DNA of 64,000 nucleotides from Onchocerca volvulus (taxonomy: Eukaryota; Nematoda; Chromadorea; Rhabditida; Onchocercidae), in contig HG738137.1 of assembly GCA_000499405.2 (NCBI GenBank), positions 16,231,601-16,295,600 on the forward strand, given 5' to 3'. A model generated the notes under the pieces. The model was given only the letters and a program-made list of their open reading frames with translations, was not told where the DNA came from and made no database searches. The position numbers and the translations under genes were made by a program. Positions 46,142-63,873 of the stretch are shown here, in pieces. Within the stretch, counting starts at the first letter, position 1; every line of letters starts with the position of its first letter.

Positions 46142-48265
46142 AACTTCGTGTAAACTAAAAGAAAATTCACATATTCCAGAAGTTTTGTAAATTAAAATAA
46201 TCATTACGTTAACATTTCGTTATTTTGATTTCTATTTCATTATTTTTTTATCTCACTCTCATAATGGCATTTGATCCTTCTCTTTTCTATGAAGTTAAAA
46301 TGCTAGAGATTGCTTAATCATCAGATTAAATTTTCGAAAATTAAGAAACATAGAATGCCTTAAAAATTAAAGAAATGGTAATTTCAAGTATAAAGAAGAT
46401 GAATGGTACAAAACATAATAGACGTTTTATATAGAATTCCACTGATGGAATTGTAAGATTTATGATTAATAATGTAAACTTGATGGAAAATTAACGTGAA
46501 AATCTTTGATTTCTTTGTAAAAACGATTAATTTAATTGTTTTGTTGAATTTCTATGAATTTGAGCTGATTGAATTGTGCAATGGTTAAGTAACAAGTTGG
46601 AAGATTGGAAAAATTTCATCGAAATTTAAATTTATTATCAAAAATTATTAAGCATTATAAGAGAAATAGCTCCGTTGCAAACGACCATAAATTGACTAGG
46701 TTAATATACAATTATAATTTCGAAAATTTTGAGCAGAATAAGAGAATTAATCCTGCTGTAGATAAAAATGAATTAATGATTTTCAGTTAGAAGCAAATAT
46801 TTCAAGAGTGAATGGAAATAGAACTTGAAAATCCGAAAATACTTTCTACTAATTTGATATTTAAAGCAGCCAAACGGATTATTTTCGTTTCTTAATCTGC
46901 AAATAATGATGTTCAAAATAATTGCAAATATGTTCATTACTTGATTTTGTTTTTTTGTTCCAAATAATCAATAAAACGAATTGTACTTATGACGACAATA
47001 TTAACAAGTGATTCAGTTCTTTTTTTAATTTAATAATATTAAATCACCGATATTCATGCCTTGCATAAAAACAATATTAAGGCAAGATTTTTCGTTAAAA
47101 AATAATTCTTTATACTTTATAAATTCCAATTTTAAAACTAAAAGAACGTATGGTTTTATTTTTGAGTTTCTGAATAAAATGACCAATTTATGATATCTAA
47201 TTCCAAATATAAAAAAGACAAAAAACTCCGAAGATCATAAATAATTCTCATTCTGATCTTGTCATCTTCAATCATTAATTTCAATTTGTTTAATATTTAA
47301 TTCTAATTTTTTTAAATTTAAATTCCAATTATCACAGATGAAGTGAAAAAAAAAAAGAAATGAATAAATGTCTAAATTGGTAAGATTTATTTAGTGAATA
47401 TATGCCTTACGATAATTTATTCTTACTAGAAAAGAGTTATATTAGAAATGGTGGAACTTTTTTGAATAGTTTAAATAAAACTATTCAGGCATTATTTGAC
47501 AGTTTTATATACCTTTCTATAACTGCCATTCGCATCATTTTAAATCCTCAAACTTTGAAATATTTTAATGTGGTTTTTTAGTAAAGCTTTTAGTAAAAGT
47601 TAGATTTGATTGAATACTAAATTTTCAAAATTTTTAATTGAAATTTTATGCATCAGGTTTGCTTTATTTATAACATAATATTTGTTAATATTATTATGAT
47701 TGTAATCATCTATTCGATTGCTCATATAATTGTGATTGTTTAATTTTGATGAAAAGTTATGGTAATAAATTTCCAATGTTTTATATTTTGATTTCATATC
47801 CTCACATTGCTAAATAATCTGTTTGTTAGATTCGCAATGTTTTAAAGTTTAATTGAAATATGATAATACTATAATAGGTTGGACTGTAAGCTTTCATTTG
47901 CGAATATGAAAAATTAAAAACCTGTCCGAAATCATCATACAAAGTAAGCAGGAAAATTTTGGCGTTATTTTTCTTTCAATTTGGTTGACTTTAATAATTT
48001 CAATAAATATGAATATATTTTGCTCAATATAACTTATTTCACGACTTCAGATTACTCACTGGAATTATAATTGTGTTAGGATAGTAATTTTGAAAAGTAT
48101 ACGGAAATTTCAGCAAAGATGAAAATTAATCAATTTGTAGATACAGCTTGCTTTGTTAAACTGATGATCATATAATTCAAATAAATTCATTCTACTGATC
48201 TAATTAATTAATAAGTTTCAGTTGAGTGGCAATATTGAAAGCTAATGCAATGAATATCGATTGAA
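46142..48265. other. intergenic region, no supported gene
   Basis: AT-rich sequence between two minus-strand genes. An open frame at 46605-46790 on the plus strand has fairly varied composition (HRNLNLLSKIIKHYKRNSS), but no acceptor, signal peptide or homologous motif supports it. Nothing else is seen. Confidence 0.5.
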
Positions 48266-50650
48266 TTAAATGATCGGCGCGAAGTTTATGCGTCCATCAC
48301 GTGGTTCCAACGTAACACAAAACTGATGGAAGAATGGTATTCCAAGCACGACTGTTTGATCAAAAATATTTCCATGGCTTCTGAATGCAAGTTCGCATTG
48401 CGTATCCTCCTGCTGGAATTCATTTATACGTTATTCATTCCAAAACGGATTAGCGATTCAGAAGCCATTTGGAAGCAGTGTATTAAAGAAATATTTTGAA
48501 TTATTGAAGTGACAATGTCGTCAGAATTTATTCTATTTTGTGAAACTTGGCTATTACTTTGGATGAAATATGTATGAGACTAATGAACACACGAACGAGG
48601 CCTGGCGTTTTTGATTTTGTTACTTCTTAATCAAATATTTCAGTAAGTTAGAAAAAAGGAGGAACTAACATTATGCTTGATGATAAAATGTTCTGGTCCA
48701 AGAGTGTAAATATTCTTAGGGGTATACATCACAAATGGTTCAAACGATCCCTGACAATCTACCATATATTTCTTCATTGTTTCATTCTTCTGAAATATTT
48801 TTATATTGAAAAAAGAACAAAAGTCTGGCATTCAGCGAATCAAAATAGAGATGAAATCAACGAAATTGTGTGCAAGACACGTAACCGTTGCATTAAGATT
48901 TCGAACGATTTGTTGCATAAATTGGTCGGGAACACCGATATATGGCTTGGTAGTATCCGGATATGCATAAGTTTTCAGAAATTTATTAAGAAAGATTGCA
49001 TTGCCCATGTTGATAGACAAATACTCAAAATCATAACGATTTCCAAAATCAACAAGCCACTCATTTTTTTCATTTTCCAAATCGCACAACTTATCATCAC
49101 GTCCGCCAAGCATTAACACAGCTGTTTTATAAGAATCCTGTATTTTCATAAATATTAATATACAGAAATGGTACAATATATGTCACTGATATCGCTAACG
49201 CTATTTATAAAGTCCTAATAAGTCGAAGAAATAATGTTATGCGATAATTGCAAATTTCCGGGAAAATTAGCTAATGATAATTTAACCAACGATAGATTAA
49301 ATTTAACTAATGATAGGATTGAAAGTCTGCTAGCATCGAAAGTTTTTCATCAAAAAGTGCAGTCATCTTCTAGATGCAATTGTCCAGCTTATATTCAAAT
49401 TTCGAATAAAATATGGGAACACATCAGAATAGTTTTCTCTTCCAGAAAACTTTATGTTAATAAAGTTGAAAAACAAAATATTTTTACCAATGATGGCAAT
49501 GCAATGGTAATGATAGGTTCCAGCTGTTTCTCTCGGATAGCTTTCTTTATCGGATTATCAGCGATTTTATCAGTTTCTATTGTTGGCAACTGAAGGATGT
49601 CATCGGTTTTCTTAAGGTATGGGGATGGAAAGCCTAGAACTCCATTTACGGTGTCATTAATATGCAACGCTGATAAACCAAATACGCCATCTATTTGTTG
49701 ATAATCTTCCAATTCGGGCCATTGTAACATGAGTAATGTACCGAAAGGAGAATTTGTGAAATTTAAGCGCTCTTCATCCAACGAATCGATCTGAAAAACA
49801 ATTTTTCAAAACTTTGAGTGCCATTGTAGGAATGATATTTCTTTGAGTTTTTGCTGGGAGTTACCTGCAAGTATTGTTATTAACGAATACGTTACGATGT
49901 TTCACTTACGAAGAGTCACTGAAAGTTTTGATTGCCAATTGAAATAAAATTAATGAATAAATATCAATTACGGCAAAATTATTTTCTTATCAATCATCTT
50001 TGAGAGCGAGAACTCAAGAAACATACCGAAATGTTATCATTCCACATACATACAGTAACTGATTGGCAACCGTGAAGTTGCGTCTGAGGACTTGAAATTA
50101 ATGTAGTGCAGGTACTCGAATTTACCTTTGAGTAGGTAGTTTTACCATGACAGAATGGGTGTCTGTAATTTTGAGGAACTGCTAATTGATATAATTATTG
50201 AAAAATCATATATTGAAATTTGAAAAATTTCATCTCACTTTAATATTTTGTGAAAATTTTGGAATATTTTTCATAAATCTTAAATTTATTCAAAATATGT
50301 GGAATAAAAAGAGACATGCATACTTGGAATCAGGTCCAACGACCCAAAGAAACGCGGTTACAGTATCCAGAAGGACAGAGAATTCTTTTTCCGGATTACC
50401 AATCATCACCTTCACAGCATATCCAGTATGATGCTAAACAAAGATAACGTATCAAATTGGAAAGTAAAATGTGCTTAAATTGAAAGTTTTAATTATTACT
50501 AAAAAAAAAGGTTGAATTTCACGAAATGATTAAATGGCATACATCTGCTTTGTTATAGACAGGATGCAATTCAACTTGATGGCCAGCAAACGTTGGTCTT
50601 GCTAGAAGAGTACAAAGGATGACTGTTAGCTTGATCAATGTATCTCTCAT
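48266..50650 (-). CDS. secreted pepsin-family (A1) protein with altered catalytic motifs, 391 aa
   Basis: Seven minus-strand exons: 50543-50650, 50324-50433, 50027-50162, 49488-49790, 48886-49137, 48670-48789 and 48266-48412 (stop 48266-48268), all phases agreeing. A signal peptide (LIKLTVILCTLLARPTFA) heads the protein, and a TTTTAG acceptor lies just before the ATG. N-lobe: FSVLLDTVTAFLWVVGPDS, aligned to the pepsin FTVVLDTGSSNLWVPS region, so the first catalytic triad is D-T-V (Asp about 59) instead of D-T/S-G. Later come DGVFGLS and DNPIKKAIREKQLEPI. C-lobe: YPDTTKPYIGVPDQFM, so the second triad is D-T-T (Asp about 280). The end is CELAFRSHGNIFDQTVVLGI followed by FFHQF and RINFAPII. The flap segment with its usual tyrosine (YG-G-G type) is not visible between residues 110 and 125. 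Both Asp are kept, but both glycines are lost, so activity is doubtful. It could be a secreted pseudo-protease or binding protein. Confidence 0.88.
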
Positions 50651-53600
50651 CTTTCCTTCTAAAATTAGCCAATTTCAAAAAAGTTGAAAAGTTCAAAGAG
50701 CAAAGAACGATCGAGAACACCTTTTTTTTTTTTAAATCACATTGTCTTTTATGAACGCCAAGAGAGATATAAAATGTCCCTACTCCATATTGTTTAAGAT
50801 GTAATAGTTATTGAATTCTACAAGAAAAAAATTCTATTACTCTTAAAATAAGTCTTTTTGGCTTTTCAAACTGTATTTTTTTAGGGCCAGAACTTATAAC
50901 TTAGATTGATCCCAATTAATAGGAAGTTATTACTATCGGTAAGTACTTCACATATCCTTGATTCATTGGGCAATTTTCGAAGAAACATTAAAGTTGGAGA
51001 GAATTTAGGTCATCCTGAGGTCACCTGTTGCATATGAAACAAAAAGAAAAGAATTTGAAACAAATTCATCAGCTTATTATTATTAAAGCTTAAAGTTGAG
51101 CATTTCAAGTTCGCCTGAACTGATCTGAGTGCTTTAAATTTGCCGTACTAATATTTTGGAAGGGATATCTTTCAGGAGAGTAATTTTCATTTCATACGAA
51201 TTCATATGCTAATTTTTCTAGCAGAGACATAGCTAATAGTTTTGAACTTTATGAGTGAATGATCAGTTTTCGTCCCAAAACTCCCCGATTACTGGTCACT
51301 CGGGATGCTCCCGATGAACTTGCAAATACTATCAGCATTTCTAATAGCTCCCATTCATCCTAGAAGTAGCTTTGATTCTTCCTGGAAAAAAGTTTCGAAA
51401 AAACCAAAGGACTTCGATAATTCAGCCTACTTGGTCTAAAATTTCTGCACATTACTTGGAAATCATTGAGAAACGAAGCCTGAAGAGCCAACTTCAGAGG
51501 AGAAATGAACTGAATTTCTTCTCGACAACAAAGATGCTATTTTCGCTGAGGGGACTTGGCCAACGATTTGGATAGTAAAGTTTGCAATGAATTATTCCAA
51601 AAATTACAGCCACGCTTATATACGCATTTTTCAGCCGACTGATCTATGATATCAGCATTTTCGTCGGATTAACACTCATTGGATTATTTCAGACTGAATG
51701 GAAATGAATTTGCATTTTAGTCTTGCAAATGAAATTATAATTAGTTCAGTTGTGTTATAGTTAGATCTTTAGATGACAATCATTCATCTATCGGAATGTC
51801 TATATAACTTTATTATTCAATGAAAATAATGAAATTAGAAATTCTATTTTCGCTTTACGCCACATTTATCAGTGCAAAGTTCAAATTGATTGACAGAAGC
51901 TAATCATTGACAGCAAATTGAAGAAAATTTGTTGGATATTTTACTGTCAAATTATGATGTGATTTTAATCGATCAAAATTTTGAGTGATAAAAATTGGAC
52001 ATTAAATTTTTTTTTTAATATTTACATTACACTTATCGTAATCAATAATTCTAAAAAATTATGTCATTTTGAATATGTTTTGATACTCTTATGACTTCAG
52101 TATTTATTATTTTATGATTCATAGTTTTGATATTTTCAACTTCTATGATCAATAGAATTTCATTTTTCTTTTTTTGTATTTTACTGATCTTTGAAAAATC
52201 AATAATCTTCCAGAAAGATGTTAACAGGTTTTTTTATGATGTCATAGTTTTGATAAGTCTATTATATAAATACTTCCATAGAGGTTTTTCTGTCTTTATA
52301 AATTTACCAGTTTTTCAATTTGCTCCATCAAATTTTCAATTTTTTTCTATATGTCCCAAACAAGTCAACAAATTCATTCATTACGACAAATATGTATAAG
52401 TTTTTTTCATTTAGTTTGATATAATTTTCATAATCCTAAGTATTATTCTTATGCCAAATATTAGTTTATTTCATTCTATAGAATCTTTCATTTTTGAATA
52501 AAAATAATAAACGAGATTTTTTGCAGAGTTAATACTGCAAATTTTTTTTTTTTGCAAATATTCTTTTTTGTTCTTTTATTTGGTGTTCAAACAATTTAAT
52601 TCAAAAGGTTTAGGCTATTCAAAGCATTCTTTCGCTTTTTTATCAGAATCAAATCACTCCGAATTAGTTTATAAAATAAAATAAAAGGCAAATGCATGGC
52701 TGCAATATTCTTGAATCTCGAAAGGAAAGGCGGAAATAAGGAAGGAAATTTTTTTTTTTTTTTGAATGAAAAATCTGGAAAATCTCTTTATTTCCTTGTT
52801 GAGACACGGATATAAAAAAAGAAATGTTATTGTCAAAGCACATTTTATTCGAATTCTCTATACTGTTTGCAAATTCAGTGTAAAATTTAATTTTAATTTG
52901 AAATTCAGTTTTTTCAAAAAGTTACCTTCCATTGCATTTCGCAGTCATATTTGAAATGTAAGTTAAGTTGCCAGTTAAATCAGAGATATTTGTCCAATAA
53001 TTTTGCGAAAAAGAACGCATAATCACTAAGATATTTGCAAATTTTCACAGAATTTGTCTATTAGATTGGAAAAAATAGCTCAATAAGTTCAGTAAGTGGA
53101 ATCGGGAATCTGAATACAAATTAGAAATGCTGGAATTGCAAAATAATGCATACAAGTTAAATGAATAAAATATGCTTTTTTAATCACAAGAATATCATAT
53201 CATCGAGTTTGTGATACAATCTAATTCGAATAATGGTATAATCATTGTGTTGCTAATCGATATTTGAAATTCTAAATATTACTATCAACTGGCAGTTCTT
53301 TTTGCATAAGCTTATTAATGAAATCATTTGATCGGAGAAGAAAGTTTTATAATAGTTCGGATATATTCGTAACGATGAAATGCATTCCTATCGAATTCGT
53401 TAAAACATTCAAATGAAATTTCCTTCCGTTTCATGTTTATGAATGAAAAAAGAAACATTATAAGAATATTTCATTAATATAGCCAAGTAAATATCATTTA
53501 CGCCAATTTTATTTGTTTACATTGATGTTTTGTTTATGTTTTTATATGCTCTAATGCAGCATATATCTCTGTTGGCTTGTTTTTTTATTTTTCGAATTAA

Positions 53601-53833
53601 TATCAATTCGAACCAAATAATATTATCACTAATTCGAATTAAATCATTCTAGGATTCATTATTTTTATTTACTTTTTTCAAAATGTTATGTGAATCAATC
53701 AAAAAAAGAAAAAAAAAAGTGAATGGAAATAGTTTGCAAGTATTACTGTACAATTGATAATATAGTCTGAAAAATTATTATTATATACATGAATATATCC
53801 ATTTTTTAGCTAATTTTATTGATTTTATTGTAG
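50651..53833. other. intergenic region between divergent genes, no supported gene
   Basis: This lies between the minus-strand pepsin-like gene and the plus-strand peptide gene, so it should hold both promoters. No TATA or known motif stands out against the AT-rich background. A less AT-rich patch at about 51240-51580 is open on the plus strand (AHYLEIIEKRSLKSQLQRRN) but has no splice context and no family match. Confidence 0.5.
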
Positions 53834-54307
53834 ATGTACCGATTCCTGAGATATTTTATACTCGAATTGATAATTATTTCATTTTTATTTGGTGATTTCG
53901 TGGTCAGCGAAGATGAAAAAATTGAAGAAACAAAGTAGGTTGGAGTGATTTCTTGATAATTCACAGTAATGAACAAAATTAATTCAATCTGCCGAATAAT
54001 GAACGGAAAGGTAAGAAATATATAATGTGTTATTAATCATTACTATTGATTAATTAAACTTGGAAAAGAATTATTATTATATTTCAGGATCCGAAAGAGA
54101 CGACAATTTTTTGAAAGTTACAGCAGTTATTCAGGATATTCCGGTCCGCATTTTAGCTCAGGTTGGAGTTATCATGGTGCACGAGCATTTCCACCACCTG
54201 TTTGTTGCTATTATGGCCCACCACCACCTCCTATGTGGTTCTATGGCTATAGTTTTGGCCATGGTCCCATGTACGGTCCCATGTATGGTCCCATTTTTTT
54301 TGGATAA
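53834..54307 (+). CDS. small secreted Gly/Tyr/Pro-rich peptide precursor, 106 aa (paralogue 1)
   Basis: Two exons, 53834-53934 and 54088-54307 (stop 54305-54307), with a 153-bp phase-2 intron. The ATG sits directly after a TTGTAG acceptor, suggesting SL trans-splicing. The precursor has a signal peptide (LILELIIISFLF-type core within MYRFLRYFILELIIISFLFG), a short acidic spacer (EDEKIEET), and a polybasic site K-I-R-K-R-R before QFFESYSSYSGYSG. The mature part of about 67 aa is rich in Gly, Tyr, Ser and Pro, with PPPVCCYYGPPPPPMWFYGY and the triplicated block GPMYGPMYGPIFFG. The adjacent Cys pair could link chains. The layout is like nematode nlp/cnc-type Gly-Tyr-rich epidermal or antimicrobial peptides, but I cannot match it to a named family. 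Function is unproven. Confidence 0.82.
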
Positions 54308-55408
54308 CTAAAAGGCTATCTCAATTGATCGATCTAAATCAAACATTTGAATCGATAGTGTTTATTTATTTTTGTGTGAATATATTTCATTCTACTTAAA
54401 TGTATTAAATCAAATGATTGCTTCTTCGTTTCTGTTTGCAAAATGCGAATGAAATTTTATTGGACACTTGTTTTCAAACTTAAATTTCATAAATTTGAAG
54501 AGTACTTGATCATTGGTTCATAAATAAATATTAGAAGAGAAGTGAAAAAGATTGTTTGCAAGATGGAAATTCAAACAAGTTTTTAATAGTTGTAAACAAA
54601 TTTCATATTGCTAATTATTTCATCCTTTAAAAGTAAAATTACATCATATTAAAAATGTAATATAAATATAATAATTCTGGAAATATTTTTATACCAAACT
54701 ACGCTATCTTCAATTTACGATTTTGTCAAGTTACATGTTTCCTTTTACTGTAAGATTGATGCAAATTTTAGACTAATATAAATTGAAATAAATTTGCTCA
54801 TTTTATTGTTAATTAATATGAATAATTATTTTTTTAGACTATGGAAAAAATATTATTATAATTTAAACCGAGAAACTCAGAAAGAGATAATTCACTGTCG
54901 AATAAATGAATAAATTGTATAACATTAAAAAAAAAAAGAATTAAAATGAGATGAAAAAAAAAAATTAACAGAAAACAAGAAAACAATCAAATACAATAGA
55001 ATTATATTATTTTTGCTTGGAATATTTCTACAATAGAATTATATTATTTTTAAATATTTTTTTTAATATTTTAAATATTTCAAATTAAATATTTCAAATT
55101 TTTAAATATTTCAAATTCTCTACTGAATTAATACTTGTTGTAGTTATCAAAGTGGAAATTTGAATTATTTAATTAATTATCTGATTTTTTTTATTTAACT
55201 ATCCAAAAGTAAGTTAAATCTATTTACGATCGTGATAAAGTTATATTAATTGAAAAACTGCACAAACTTGTATGTAATAACGAATTTCCGTGTTTTTTTT
55301 TTTTAAACTTTCATGAATTAAAAAGGCCCAAGGATCATCACGATCGATTGGTAATAATCGTTCTTCTGAGCTTATATAATTAAAATTATTAGCAGCGAAA
55401 ACTTTCAG
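54308..55408. other. spacer between the two peptide genes
   Basis: About 1.1 kb without coding signal. It holds a duplicated ACAATAGAATTATATTATTT string near 54993 and 55029 followed by several TTTAAATATTTCAAA-like copies up to about 55122. An ATAAATAAA string near 54523 could serve as the poly(A) signal of the first peptide gene. Confidence 0.5.
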
Positions 55409-55757
55409 ATGTCTACGAAAATGTTGTCACATATTCTTGTCATTATTCTTTGTGTAAATCTGATATCGATCACCTGTCGTGAGATATCTGATGTTAACAC
55501 AATAAGGTATTAATTTAAATTTTAGATGTGAAATTTGAATTTTTCCTCTGTTCAAACAAAAATAATTTAGCATTTCGGGTTTAATTATGTTCCAAATTTT
55601 TGCTTATTCTTCCAGAAAACGCGACAAGCGACAATTTTACGGTGGTGGTCGCTTTGGCAGCATATCTGTTCCGTCTTTCCAACATACCTGTTGTAGCCAT
55701 CATAATGGATGGTATGGTCCATATCCTGATTATGGTTTTGGCTATGGCTGGGAATGA
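55409..55757 (+). CDS. small secreted Gly/Tyr-rich peptide precursor, 79 aa (paralogue 2)
   Basis: Two exons, 55409-55506 and 55616-55757 (stop 55755-55757), with a 109-bp phase-2 intron. The ATG directly follows ACTTTCAG, a candidate SL acceptor. There is a signal peptide (MSTKMLSHILVIILCVNLIS), a short spacer, then a polybasic site R-K-R-D-K-R before QFYGGGRFGS. The mature part is about 41 aa, with HTCCSHHNGWYGPYP and the tail DYGFGYGWE. The codon split by the intron is the sixth residue before the mature Gln, exactly as in the gene 1.1 kb upstream. The QF(F/Y) start, the Cys-Cys pair and the following G-P are also shared. These features show the two genes are tandem paralogues that have diverged strongly in the mature peptide. 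Likely secreted and processed by a furin or prohormone-convertase type enzyme (inference). Confidence 0.84.
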
Positions 55758-55884
55758 TTTTTGTGAGACGACAATTCTGGCGGAAGCATTGATTTTAATT
55801 TTGGCTCAGATTTTTGATTCATTTTACAAAGAGATCGAAATGTTGCAAATTTTTTGTATTTATAATATATTATATGATTATTTC

Positions 55885-55890
55885 AATAAA
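55885..55890 (+). terminator. candidate poly(A) signal of peptide gene 2
   Basis: AATAAA about 130 bp after the stop codon of the second peptide gene, in sequence with no competing coding signal. The distance is normal for a nematode 3' UTR. Confidence 0.55.
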
Positions 55891-61519: not shown

Positions 61520-63873
61520 TCCACTGTCGCATTGTTGCATGTAGTCCGGTTTTTCTTGGCTTTCTGTGCCTTTGGTGCAGTAAAAGCCAAGCGACAGACT
61601 ATTTCAGAAGAGGTGATGTTTTCTTCTTCTTTTTTTTATTGAATTTTTTTTGCATGAATTCCTGAGAAAATTTTTGATTCCTAGAGTGTTTTGGTAGATT
61701 CTGATTTCGTAGATTCTGATTCCTGAAATTGTCATATTTATTTGCATGCTTTCGTTGATTGTTGCATTAGATTGACTTCTGCTGATCATCTTTGAAACAA
61801 TTTTCAGAAATGATTTATAAATCATCGAAAAAAAGGAATGATGGACAGAAAATTAATAGTGATAATTAAAATTAATATTAGTATTTTAGGATCCAAATTC
61901 CCGATATCAGTGTCAAGGATCATTGAGCGATTATGCAGCTTGTCAATGCCGTGAGCAGGAGAGCGAATTATCTTGTATAAATGCTCAATTTGTTGATACC
62001 AATATTTTCCTTCATGTAAATAATCTATATCGGTAAGTATATTAATTAATTAATCAATATTAAATTCTCTTAAATCTCAATGTATTATTTAATTTTTTTG
62101 TATAATAAAAATTAATAATTATTCTTTTCATTTTCAGACATCTCCGAAAAGTAACATTTCATGGGAATAATTTCCAAGATTTACCTAATAGTCCATTATT
62201 TGGACAAAATGAACATAAAAATCTCGAGGTAATTCGAAATAGCATATTACAGAAATAATCATTCAAATTATTTCTTACCAAATGATGACGCTTATATTAA
62301 AGTTTCAAATTAACAAACTGGTAATGGTGACTGTTCTTCATCTCAATTCTGACTTATCTTCAGAGCAAATTTACTTAATTACCGAAAAATCAAAATTCGA
62401 TATGTTGATGCATTGTACTTGCCAAAAAAAAAAATTATGCAATTAAAAAATATATATATAATAATCATTTAATTAAATCTATTTTTCTCTTCCAGTTATT
62501 GAATATCTCAGCAAATTACATTGTGAATTTGCATTCGAATGCACTACGAGGAATGCCAAATTTATTGGTACTTGATTTGAGTAATAATGAAATTGTACTC
62601 AAAGAAGGAGATATCAATTTCTTGTCACATACGCCGAAATTGAAACAAGTAAGCCGAAATTGGAAAAATTTAATTAAAAAAAGGAAAGAAAAGATGGAAA
62701 AGATAATTTGGATTTTGAGAAATATCGATTGATACGAGGAAAAAATGGAACATTATTCTCAAAAAATAGAATTCAGACTGAGTAAAGAAAATTTCATTTT
62801 GTTAAAAAATTCACATATCGATTAAGTAAAAATCGTTTTAAATCTTCATTCCCATATTTTATCTTGTCATGTGATAGCGAATGATAAGTCAGATATTCTT
62901 TGGTAAACTTACTGCTGCTAGTAGTAAGAATTTTGAGACTTTAAATTCGAAAAACGGAAGATAGGGTGAGCTTTGATTTTAATTTGAGCTAATTAACTTT
63001 TAAGCAATTTTAATTTAAGCAATTTTTTAAATTAATTAACATTTTTAATTAATTAACTTTTTTTTAAACTTTTAAGCATACGAAATGTTAATGATAATAA
63101 TTCTAATTCAAACATTGTAAAATTCGAAAGAATACAAAAAATTCCATCCTATTTTATGCCACTTTTTTTCAGCTTTATTTGAGACGAGCATTCACTTCGC
63201 TTGTCAATCGTACCGTACAATTTTCGTTAATGATGCGAATGTTCAAGAAAGCTAATTTACAGCAGTTAAATGTAATTTTTCTTTTAAATTCTAAATTAAA
63301 ATTTAAACTAACTTATCTGATAGCTTTAAACAGTGAAGGATTTTTACGTTAATATTATACGATCAATCAGAGAATTGATATTCGGTCTCTACCGATATCC
63401 AGTTATGCCATTTTTGGAACATCTTAAACATTGATTATCCGCATAAATTCTACGTGATACGTGGAAATTTTTGCTAAAAAATTAAATTCGAAGAAAGCAG
63501 ATTTGCGATGGATTTGTTTTGAATACTTCGTAAAGCTGATGTTTCGTGCCATCTTTGCCTCATTTTAGTGATAATATTTGTGATGAATAGAAAACTTTTT
63601 TTTTAATTTCTTCTCTCTTTCCATCTTCATTGATTGAGGAAATTGTTTTTGCGAAAATCTTTAAATTTTGCGAAGATTTTTAAAAATTCAATTACTACCA
63701 AATATTTCATTACAGTATATTGATCTGAGCTACAATTACTTCACCAAACTACCTTATAATTTACCATGTCCATTCCCGTCCTTGAGGTATCTCGATTTAC
63801 GCCAGAATTTTCTTCAAACAATCAATCTTAATACCACATGTTTATTGAAAATTGAGACCATTGATCTCAGCAG
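61520..63873 (+). CDS. extracellular leucine-rich-repeat protein, N-terminal part (runs off window)
   Basis: Exons 61520-61612, 61890-62032, 62138-62228, 62496-62648, 63173-63271 and 63716-63873, all GT-AG and in agreeing phases. The first carries a signal peptide core (ALLHVVRFFLAFCAFGAVKA) but no ATG, so the start codon must be in an upstream exon (see 58946-59325). Then comes a Cys-rich N-terminal cap (YQCQGSLSDYAACQCREQES and a fourth Cys in ELSC), followed by repeats of LRR type: LNISANYIVNLHSNALRGMP, NLLVLDLSNNEIV, YIDLSYNYFTKLP and LRYLDLRQNFLQTINL. Several NxS/T sites suit an extracellular location. Whether the complete protein has a transmembrane segment or Ig domains cannot be seen. 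By family it probably works in epithelial matrix, neuronal patterning or adhesion, which is inference. Confidence 0.88.

What the first reader, a model, noticed from the sequence alone, without database searches (positions are those of the whole stretch)
53834..55757. Tandem pair of undescribed secreted, dibasic-processed Gly/Tyr-rich peptides
Two adjacent same-strand genes share: ATG directly after an AG acceptor, a signal peptide, a phase-2 intron splitting the sixth codon before the mature Gln, a polybasic site ending KR or RR, mature start QF(F/Y), a Cys-Cys pair followed by a G-P, and Tyr/Gly-rich tails. The mature sequences otherwise differ greatly, as expected for fast-evolving effector, antimicrobial or cuticle-linked peptides. 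I know no named family with this exact layout, though nlp/cnc-type peptides are a loose analogue.
Basis: partly seen in the sequence, partly recalled or inferred. Interest (0 to 1): 0.75.

Follow-up and report, generated by a model that had tools for sequence, protein, structure and literature searches.

The report
Filarial secreted, furin-cut peptide genes
Two neighbouring genes of a filarial worm (Onchocerca volvulus) are predicted to make small secreted peptides of an unnamed family found in other filarial worms, and these two copies lack parts that most relatives keep.

Summary
Both genes lie at the stated coordinates with GT-AG phase-2 introns splitting the sixth codon before the mature Gln, and both predicted proteins equal Onchocerca volvulus database entries letter for letter. 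They are true paralogues. A profile search listed 15 proteins, all from filarial worms, 8 of them new to the query. All 16 rows examined keep a furin-type site R-x-[KR]-R before Gln.

(1) The pair is half of a duplication: a second pair lies about 610 kb away, followed by a third gene of the same layout. (2) Cys-Cys is not a family trait: 3 of 16 rows have mature Cys. (3) Window gene 2 lacks the Arg/Trp tail (RRRFWRRRW-like) of its relatives. 'Fast-evolving' holds only for gene 1: its mature exon is a divergence island, while gene 2's is no more diverged than nearby intergenic DNA. Positive selection is not shown.

Function is untested. I favour a cationic, antimicrobial-like secreted peptide for the ancestral tailed form; a cuticle or eggshell matrix peptide is the main rival.

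The parts
53834..53934 (+). Gene 1 exon 1: ATG directly after TAG; signal-like hydrophobic stretch and acidic pro-segment
   Evidence: protein equals P0006/A0A8R1TP57; 96% identical to the copy at C2:15.674 Mb
53935..54087 (+). Gene 1 intron, phase 2, GT-AG, splits the sixth codon before mature Gln
   Evidence: 94% identical to the copy
54088..54307 (+). Gene 1 exon 2: furin-type RKRR|Q, mature Gly/Tyr/Pro-rich peptide with CC, ending GPIFFG, stop
   Evidence: mature part 64% identical to the copy plus 21 gap columns
54523..54528 (+). AATAAA, possible poly(A) signal of gene 1
   Evidence: read by eye; not tested
55409..55506 (+). Gene 2 exon 1: ATG directly after CAG; signal-like hydrophobic stretch and pro-segment
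   Evidence: protein equals P0001/A0A8R1XRI7; 97% identical to the copy
55507..55615 (+). Gene 2 intron, phase 2, GT-AG, splits the sixth codon before mature Gln
   Evidence: 109 of 109 bases identical to the copy
55616..55757 (+). Gene 2 exon 2: furin-type RDKR|Q, core ISVPSF, CC in place of WG, short end GWE
   Evidence: O. ochengi protein P0003 (partial) shares CC and the GWE end
55763..55784 (+). Possible out-of-frame remnant of the DNA for the Arg/Trp tail, after the stop codon
   Evidence: 22-base match, 19 identical, to the tail DNA of the copy; 13 of 500 letter-shuffles reached the score, so moderate support only
55885..55890 (+). AATAAA, possible poly(A) signal of gene 2
   Evidence: read by eye; not tested
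48032..55755 (+). Segmental duplication carrying genes 1 and 2; the copy lies at C2:15668378-15676080
   Evidence: BLAST pieces 92% and 86%; 94% over 7541 ungapped aligned bases

Best explanation
Genes 1 and 2 are a duplicated tandem pair from a family of small prepropeptides seen so far only in filarial worms. Shown from sequence: a conserved furin motif R-x-[KR]-R before Gln, a shared intron position in the five O. volvulus genes, a conserved core F(G/A)xISVPFFxxxWG, and in gene-2-type relatives an Arg/Trp tail (RRRFWRRRW or close) that makes the mature peptide basic (predicted pI about 10). Inferred: the signal peptide is removed on secretion, a furin/BLI-4-like convertase cuts after R-x-[KR]-R, the new N-terminal Gln cyclises, and the ancestral tailed peptide acts at anionic surfaces (microbial or other membranes) through its Arg/Trp tail, as short cationic antimicrobial peptides do. 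The window pair are derived copies: gene 2 lacks the tail and gene 1 lacks the SVPFF core, so both are near-neutral and probably do a changed or lesser job. My confidence is about 0.9 in the family and its layout and about 0.35 in antimicrobial-like action; the figure below is for the whole statement and does not exclude all rivals.
For: Exact matches to O. volvulus proteins. Profile search: 15 of 15 listed hits are filarial, 7 of them the query rows themselves. R-x-[KR]-R-Q in 16 of 16 rows and in the third gene. The split codon is sixth before Gln in 5 of 5 O. volvulus genes. Gene-1-type versus gene-2-type E 1.8e-9. The Arg/Trp tail is in 8 of the 9 rows of A4, the window gene being the ninth; 6 have RRRFWRRRW exactly, Elaeophora and Setaria differ by one residue. 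The third gene has a similar VRRFWRRRF. Mature pI is 9.8-11.2 in 11 tailed rows against 6.3 and 7.0 for the two window peptides.
Against: No expression, proteomic or activity data were reachable. No signal-peptide program was run, only a hydropathy scan. The window peptides lack the cationic tail on which the antimicrobial reading rests, and all 3 gene-1-type rows are near-neutral (pI 6.3-7.2; the Dirofilaria row has a suspect tail). An Arg cluster can also be a processing site or a matrix-binding patch. The model has no confident fold beyond part of the N-terminal helix (mean pLDDT 44.8, 9 sequences), which favours no function.
Confidence: 0.45

Rival explanations
1. Structural peptides of the cuticle, eggshell or microfilarial sheath: Gly/Tyr/aromatic-rich matrix peptides released by a convertase (as nematode collagens are, recalled) and cross-linked through Tyr.
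For: Aromatic content 18-33% and Gly 12-23% of the mature part over 16 rows; furin-type site like that of nematode cuticle collagens (recalled, not tested); no confident fold.
Against: A conserved core and Arg/Trp tail rather than the repeats usual in matrix proteins (judged by eye; no repeat tool was run). One paper search on sheath proteins listed 3 papers that I did not read.
Confidence: 0.3
2. Peptides secreted to the host-parasite interface as effectors or immune modulators.
For: Small, secreted-type, filarial only among the hits; gene 1's mature exon is a divergence island.
Against: Point estimates of dN are below dS in both mature exons, with intervals that include zero difference; gene 2's mature exon is not more diverged than intergenic DNA; the core is conserved between Setaria and Onchocerca. 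The passages seen of the O. ochengi proteome paper PMC4974336 (word search) do not mention such peptides; its tables were not readable.
Confidence: 0.15
3. Neuropeptide-type hormones. Gene 1 and its copy both end FFG before the stop, which could be a C-terminal amidation signal.
For: Basic site, N-terminal Gln, and the GPxFFG end kept in both O. volvulus copies although the mature exon is 64% identical; database name 'Neuropeptide-like protein 31' in O. flexuosa. A Brugia head gene, Bma-nlp-77, is reported as highly expressed (PMC9017939, passages); whether it belongs here was not tested.
Against: One long mature peptide (41-94 aa) rather than several short ones between basic sites; gene-2-type ends differ between species; C. 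elegans NLP-31 is given as the example of glycine-rich secreted antimicrobial-group peptides (PMC10506718 Methods).
Confidence: 0.05
4. The window pair is a decaying duplicate without function.
For: Gene 2 has a short end with a possible out-of-frame tail remnant; gene 1 lacks the SVPFF core; dN/dS in the mature exons is not distinguishable from 1.
Against: Both frames are open with intact splice and furin sites; an O. ochengi protein keeps the short form of gene 2 with 45 of 46 residues identical over the part held.
Confidence: 0.15

Closest known systems
Nematode glycine-rich secreted peptides (GRSP; PMC10506718 counts NLP-24 to NLP-34 among them)
   Same: Short secreted-type precursors with a Gly-rich mature part; window gene 2 has 22% mature glycine
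   Different: Conserved furin site, conserved ISVPFF core and Arg/Trp tail; window gene 1 has 16% mature glycine, below the >17% cut-off (criteria from PMC10506718 Methods). [quoted passage not shown]
Database entries 'Neuropeptide-like protein 31' (O. flexuosa) and 'Glycine-rich protein' (Setaria digitata)
   Same: Homologues: profile E 3.8e-31 (a query row) and 2.7e-15
   Different: The names look like automatic labels (my judgement); nothing here tests a neuropeptide role
Short Trp/Arg-rich antimicrobial peptides (recalled; e.g. indolicidin, tritrpticin)
   Same: An Arg/Trp cluster in gene-2-type relatives
   Different: Resemblance of composition only, not tested; absent from both window genes

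Membership tests
Nematode GRSP (criteria in PMC10506718 Methods) | At most 200 amino acids | tested here: met
   106 and 79 aa
Nematode GRSP (criteria in PMC10506718 Methods) | Signal peptide | tested here: inconclusive
   Hydrophobic N-terminal stretch, best 12-residue hydropathy 2.8 (gene 1) and 3.0 (gene 2); SignalP not available
Nematode GRSP (criteria in PMC10506718 Methods) | Mature glycine above 17% | tested here: not met
   Gene 1: 16%, not met; gene 2: 22%, met. So gene 1 is not filed as a GRSP
Nematode GRSP (criteria in PMC10506718 Methods) | A known C. elegans GRSP among the top five BLAST hits | not testable with these tools
   No C. elegans protein set on hand for that test; the profile search listed only filarial proteins
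Neuropeptide precursor (FLP/NLP type; definition recalled) | Several short peptides between basic sites, commonly with amidation Gly | tested here: not met
   One R-x-[KR]-R site before a single mature peptide in both window genes; gene 1 does end in Gly before the stop
This filarial family (defined here) | R-x-[KR]-R before Gln and split codon sixth before Gln | tested here: met
   Both window genes; also the two copies and the third gene. Introns of other species could not be seen
This filarial family (defined here) | Core SV(G)P[FY]F | tested here: not met
   Gene 2 has SVPSF and gene 1 SGPHF; 12 of the 15 database rows fit, the 3 exceptions being the two window proteins and the O. ochengi form of window gene 2. 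Homology rests on the rest of the sequence and on the sister copies
Any Pfam-A family | Match at or above the gathering score | tested here: not met
   0 families at E up to 1 for the two window proteins. Over 14 members of A2, 5 families were each matched by 1 member, best E 0.0019 (Sre chemoreceptor), which I take as composition noise; cut-offs were not shown

The most novel reading that the evidence does not exclude
After duplication in Onchocerca, both genes of this pair gained an adjacent Cys-Cys in mature peptides whose relatives have no mature Cys, while gene 2 shed its cationic tail. The pair may now make disulfide-linked (for example heterodimeric, or vicinally bridged) neutral peptides with a new role.
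Probability: 0.12. Interest if true: 0.55.

Novelty: new variant of a known kind. Interest (0 to 1): 0.4.

Why it matters
A small secreted peptide family shared by several filarial genera, with no Pfam model and misleading database names, becomes recognisable from its furin site, intron position, core and Arg/Trp tail. If the tailed forms are antimicrobial-like, they would bear on the report that filarial worms have a reduced antimicrobial peptide complement (PMC10506718, passage seen). If they are matrix peptides, they are candidate filarial surface markers.

Tried and rejected
CC pair as a family signature: rejected. 3 of 16 rows have any mature Cys: window gene 1, window gene 2 and the O. 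ochengi form of gene 2; the third gene has none.

Positive selection on the mature peptides: not supported. NG86 gives gene 1 mature dN 0.47, dS 0.70, and gene 2 mature dN 0.18, dS 0.27; bootstrap intervals for dN minus dS include zero.

Both mature exons as divergence islands: only gene 1. Its mismatches exceed the intron (p 1.1e-11), 3' flank (p 2.4e-12) and intergenic stretch (p 2.0e-5). Gene 2's exceed its intron (0 of 109 mismatches, p 1.8e-7) and the far 5' flank (p 0.008) but not its own 5' flank (p 0.24) or the intergenic stretch (p 1.0). The pooled test (p 0.0024) for gene 2 was driven by the identical intron. For gene 1 I did not separate patchy gene conversion from unreliable alignment of low-complexity codons.

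Faster change in the window copies: not supported for gene 1 (8 changes in the window copy against 9 in the other, 46 mature columns); weak for gene 2 (8 against 4 departures in 30 conserved columns).

Third gene as homologue: moderate. 1 of 1000 mature-shuffled controls reached its score against A4 and 4 of 1000 against A2; 0 of 1000 fully shuffled ones in each. The protein searches did not find it, so five genes is a lower bound.

Weak extra hits left aside: C4:3865564 (E 0.137; its DNA was printed but not analysed) and four short AT-rich DNA matches.

Pfam and PDB sequences (0 matches) gave nothing usable; AlphaFold2 gave mean pLDDT 44.8, so no fold search was made. Paper searches for gene identifiers found 0 papers. 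Searches listed none that names this family in title or abstract start; lists were partial for (20 of 411; 8 of 24; 8 of 88). Beyond listings I saw passages of PMC10506718, PMC9017939, PMC8764417 and PMC4974336, and one Methods section of PMC10506718. Supplementary tables were not readable, so these genes may be listed there.

Rows dropped: P0003 (partial) from A2; P0003, P0014 (looks chimeric) and P0015 (near-duplicate) from A4. The tail of P0010 after YYY was left out of the count.

Full report
What is there. The window belongs to a 94.7 Mb assembly. Its two gene products are identical to Onchocerca volvulus database proteins A0A8R1TP57 (106 aa) and A0A8R1XRI7 (79 aa), so the organism is O. 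volvulus or an extremely close relative. Gene 1 is 53834-53934 + 54088-54307; gene 2 is 55409-55506 + 55616-55757. Each ATG directly follows an AG, which suits spliced-leader trans-splicing (inference). Both introns are GT-AG, in phase 2, and split the sixth codon before the mature Gln.

The second locus. A block from 48032 to 55755 is duplicated at C2:15668378-15676080, about 610 kb away on the same contig, with 94% identity over 7541 ungapped aligned bases. The copy carries intact versions of both genes, of 99 and 117 aa; O. volvulus protein A0A2K6VS32 equals the first of them. The copy pair is followed by a third gene, spliced 99 aa, with ATG after CAG, a phase-2 intron splitting the sixth codon before Gln, and site RVKR|QFF. 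O. ochengi has proteins of both gene 2 forms: P0003 (partial) differs from the window form at 1 of 46 residues and P0002 from the copy form at 2 of 117. The duplication is therefore best read as real and older than that species split. Whole-genome searches with members of both types gave convincing scores only at these two loci, but they missed the third gene, so more distant members may exist; a search with the third gene found only itself.

The family. Profile A1 (7 sequences) listed 15 proteins at E up to 10 among 2110 candidates, all filarial: O. volvulus, O. ochengi, O. flexuosa, Loa loa, Dirofilaria immitis, Elaeophora elaphi, Wuchereria bancrofti, Brugia pahangi, Setaria digitata. Seven are the query rows; the worst E is 2.2e-7. 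That tool needs shared short words and similar length, so absence elsewhere is not proof. Alignment A2 (14 sequences) shows R-x-[KR]-R-Q and the core ISVPFFxYAWG, written SVGP[FY]F in Dirofilaria gene 2 and Elaeophora. In A4, 8 of 9 gene-2-type rows have the tail RRRFWRRRW, RRRFSRRRW (Elaeophora) or RRRVWRRRW (Setaria); the ninth is the window gene. All 16 rows tested (15 database proteins and the copy-locus gene 2) keep R-x-[KR]-R before Gln; some rows are near-duplicates. Gene-1-type and gene-2-type profiles align over 34 columns at E 1.8e-9, so genes 1 and 2 are paralogues, not look-alikes.

How the window pair differs. Window gene 2 stops at GWE before the place of the Arg/Trp tail; a 22-base match to the tail DNA lies out of frame five bases after the stop (13 of 500 shuffles reach its score). 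Its CC stands where the other 8 rows of A4 have WG. Window gene 1 has YSGPHF where its copy and the Dirofilaria protein have LSVPFF or ISVPFF, and a CC that neither has. Mature Cys occurs in 3 of 16 rows. With 3 gene-1-type rows the history of gene 1 is thin. This parallel gain is the oddest fact here and is unexplained.

Evolution. Against the copy, gene 1 exon 1 is 96% identical, its intron 94%, the mature exon 64% with 21 gap columns, and the 3' flank 89%; gene 2 exon 1 is 97%, its intron 100%, the mature exon 81.5%, its 5' flank 87% and the intergenic middle 81%. Gene 1's mature exon is a divergence island against every neighbour tested; gene 2's is not, its exon 1 and intron being unusually alike instead. 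Silent sites share the divergence. Patchy gene conversion fits; positive selection is not shown. Relative-rate counts do not single out the window copies.

Mechanism. Shown from sequence: precursor layout, conserved processing motif, conserved core, a basic tail in relatives and its absence here. Inferred: secretion, convertase cleavage, pyro-Glu formation. Least certain: action. The 11 tailed rows (pI 9.8-11.2) look like cationic surface-active peptides; the window pair (pI 7.0 and 6.3) does not. AlphaFold2 gives no confident fold, and Pfam and PDB no usable relatives. A matrix role in cuticle, eggshell or sheath remains a strong rival.

Known or not. Published GRSP criteria (PMC10506718 Methods) are met by gene 2 on length and glycine but not by gene 1 on glycine. 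McKay et al. (PMC8764417, passage) left nlp-24-34 out of their parasite search. The passages seen do not name this family, but I read no whole paper and no supplementary table, so a listing there is possible. A highly expressed Brugia head gene, Bma-nlp-77 (PMC9017939, passage), could not be compared. I rate it a new variant of a known kind (secreted Gly/aromatic-rich nematode peptides) with interest 0.4.

Noticed in passing
L018:4436-5130 (C2:15677435-15678129): A third tandem gene of the same layout downstream of the copy pair, strongly basic (computed pI about 12) with VRRFWRRRF; the motif scan found no counterpart in the window.
   Followed up: partly
window 48032-52300: The rest of the duplicated block, 85-100% identical to the copy in 250-base steps, holds open frames on the minus strand at 48832-49182 and 49452-49805 that may be exons of one gene; no Pfam match, and for the second only weak PDB matches (E 0.48 and 0.74).
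   Followed up: partly
window 62409-62732: An open frame with a leucine-rich repeat match (LRR_8, E 4.7e-7, above its cut-off).
   Followed up: no
window 54287-54304 and L002:1953-1970: Gene 1 and its copy both end GPxFFG before the stop, a possible amidation signal kept although the mature exon is 64% identical.
   Followed up: no
P0008, P0010, P0014 (Dirofilaria immitis): Two family members carry misleading database names ('Vacuolar amino acid transporter', 'Fusion glycoprotein'), and P0014 looks like a chimeric gene model.
   Followed up: no
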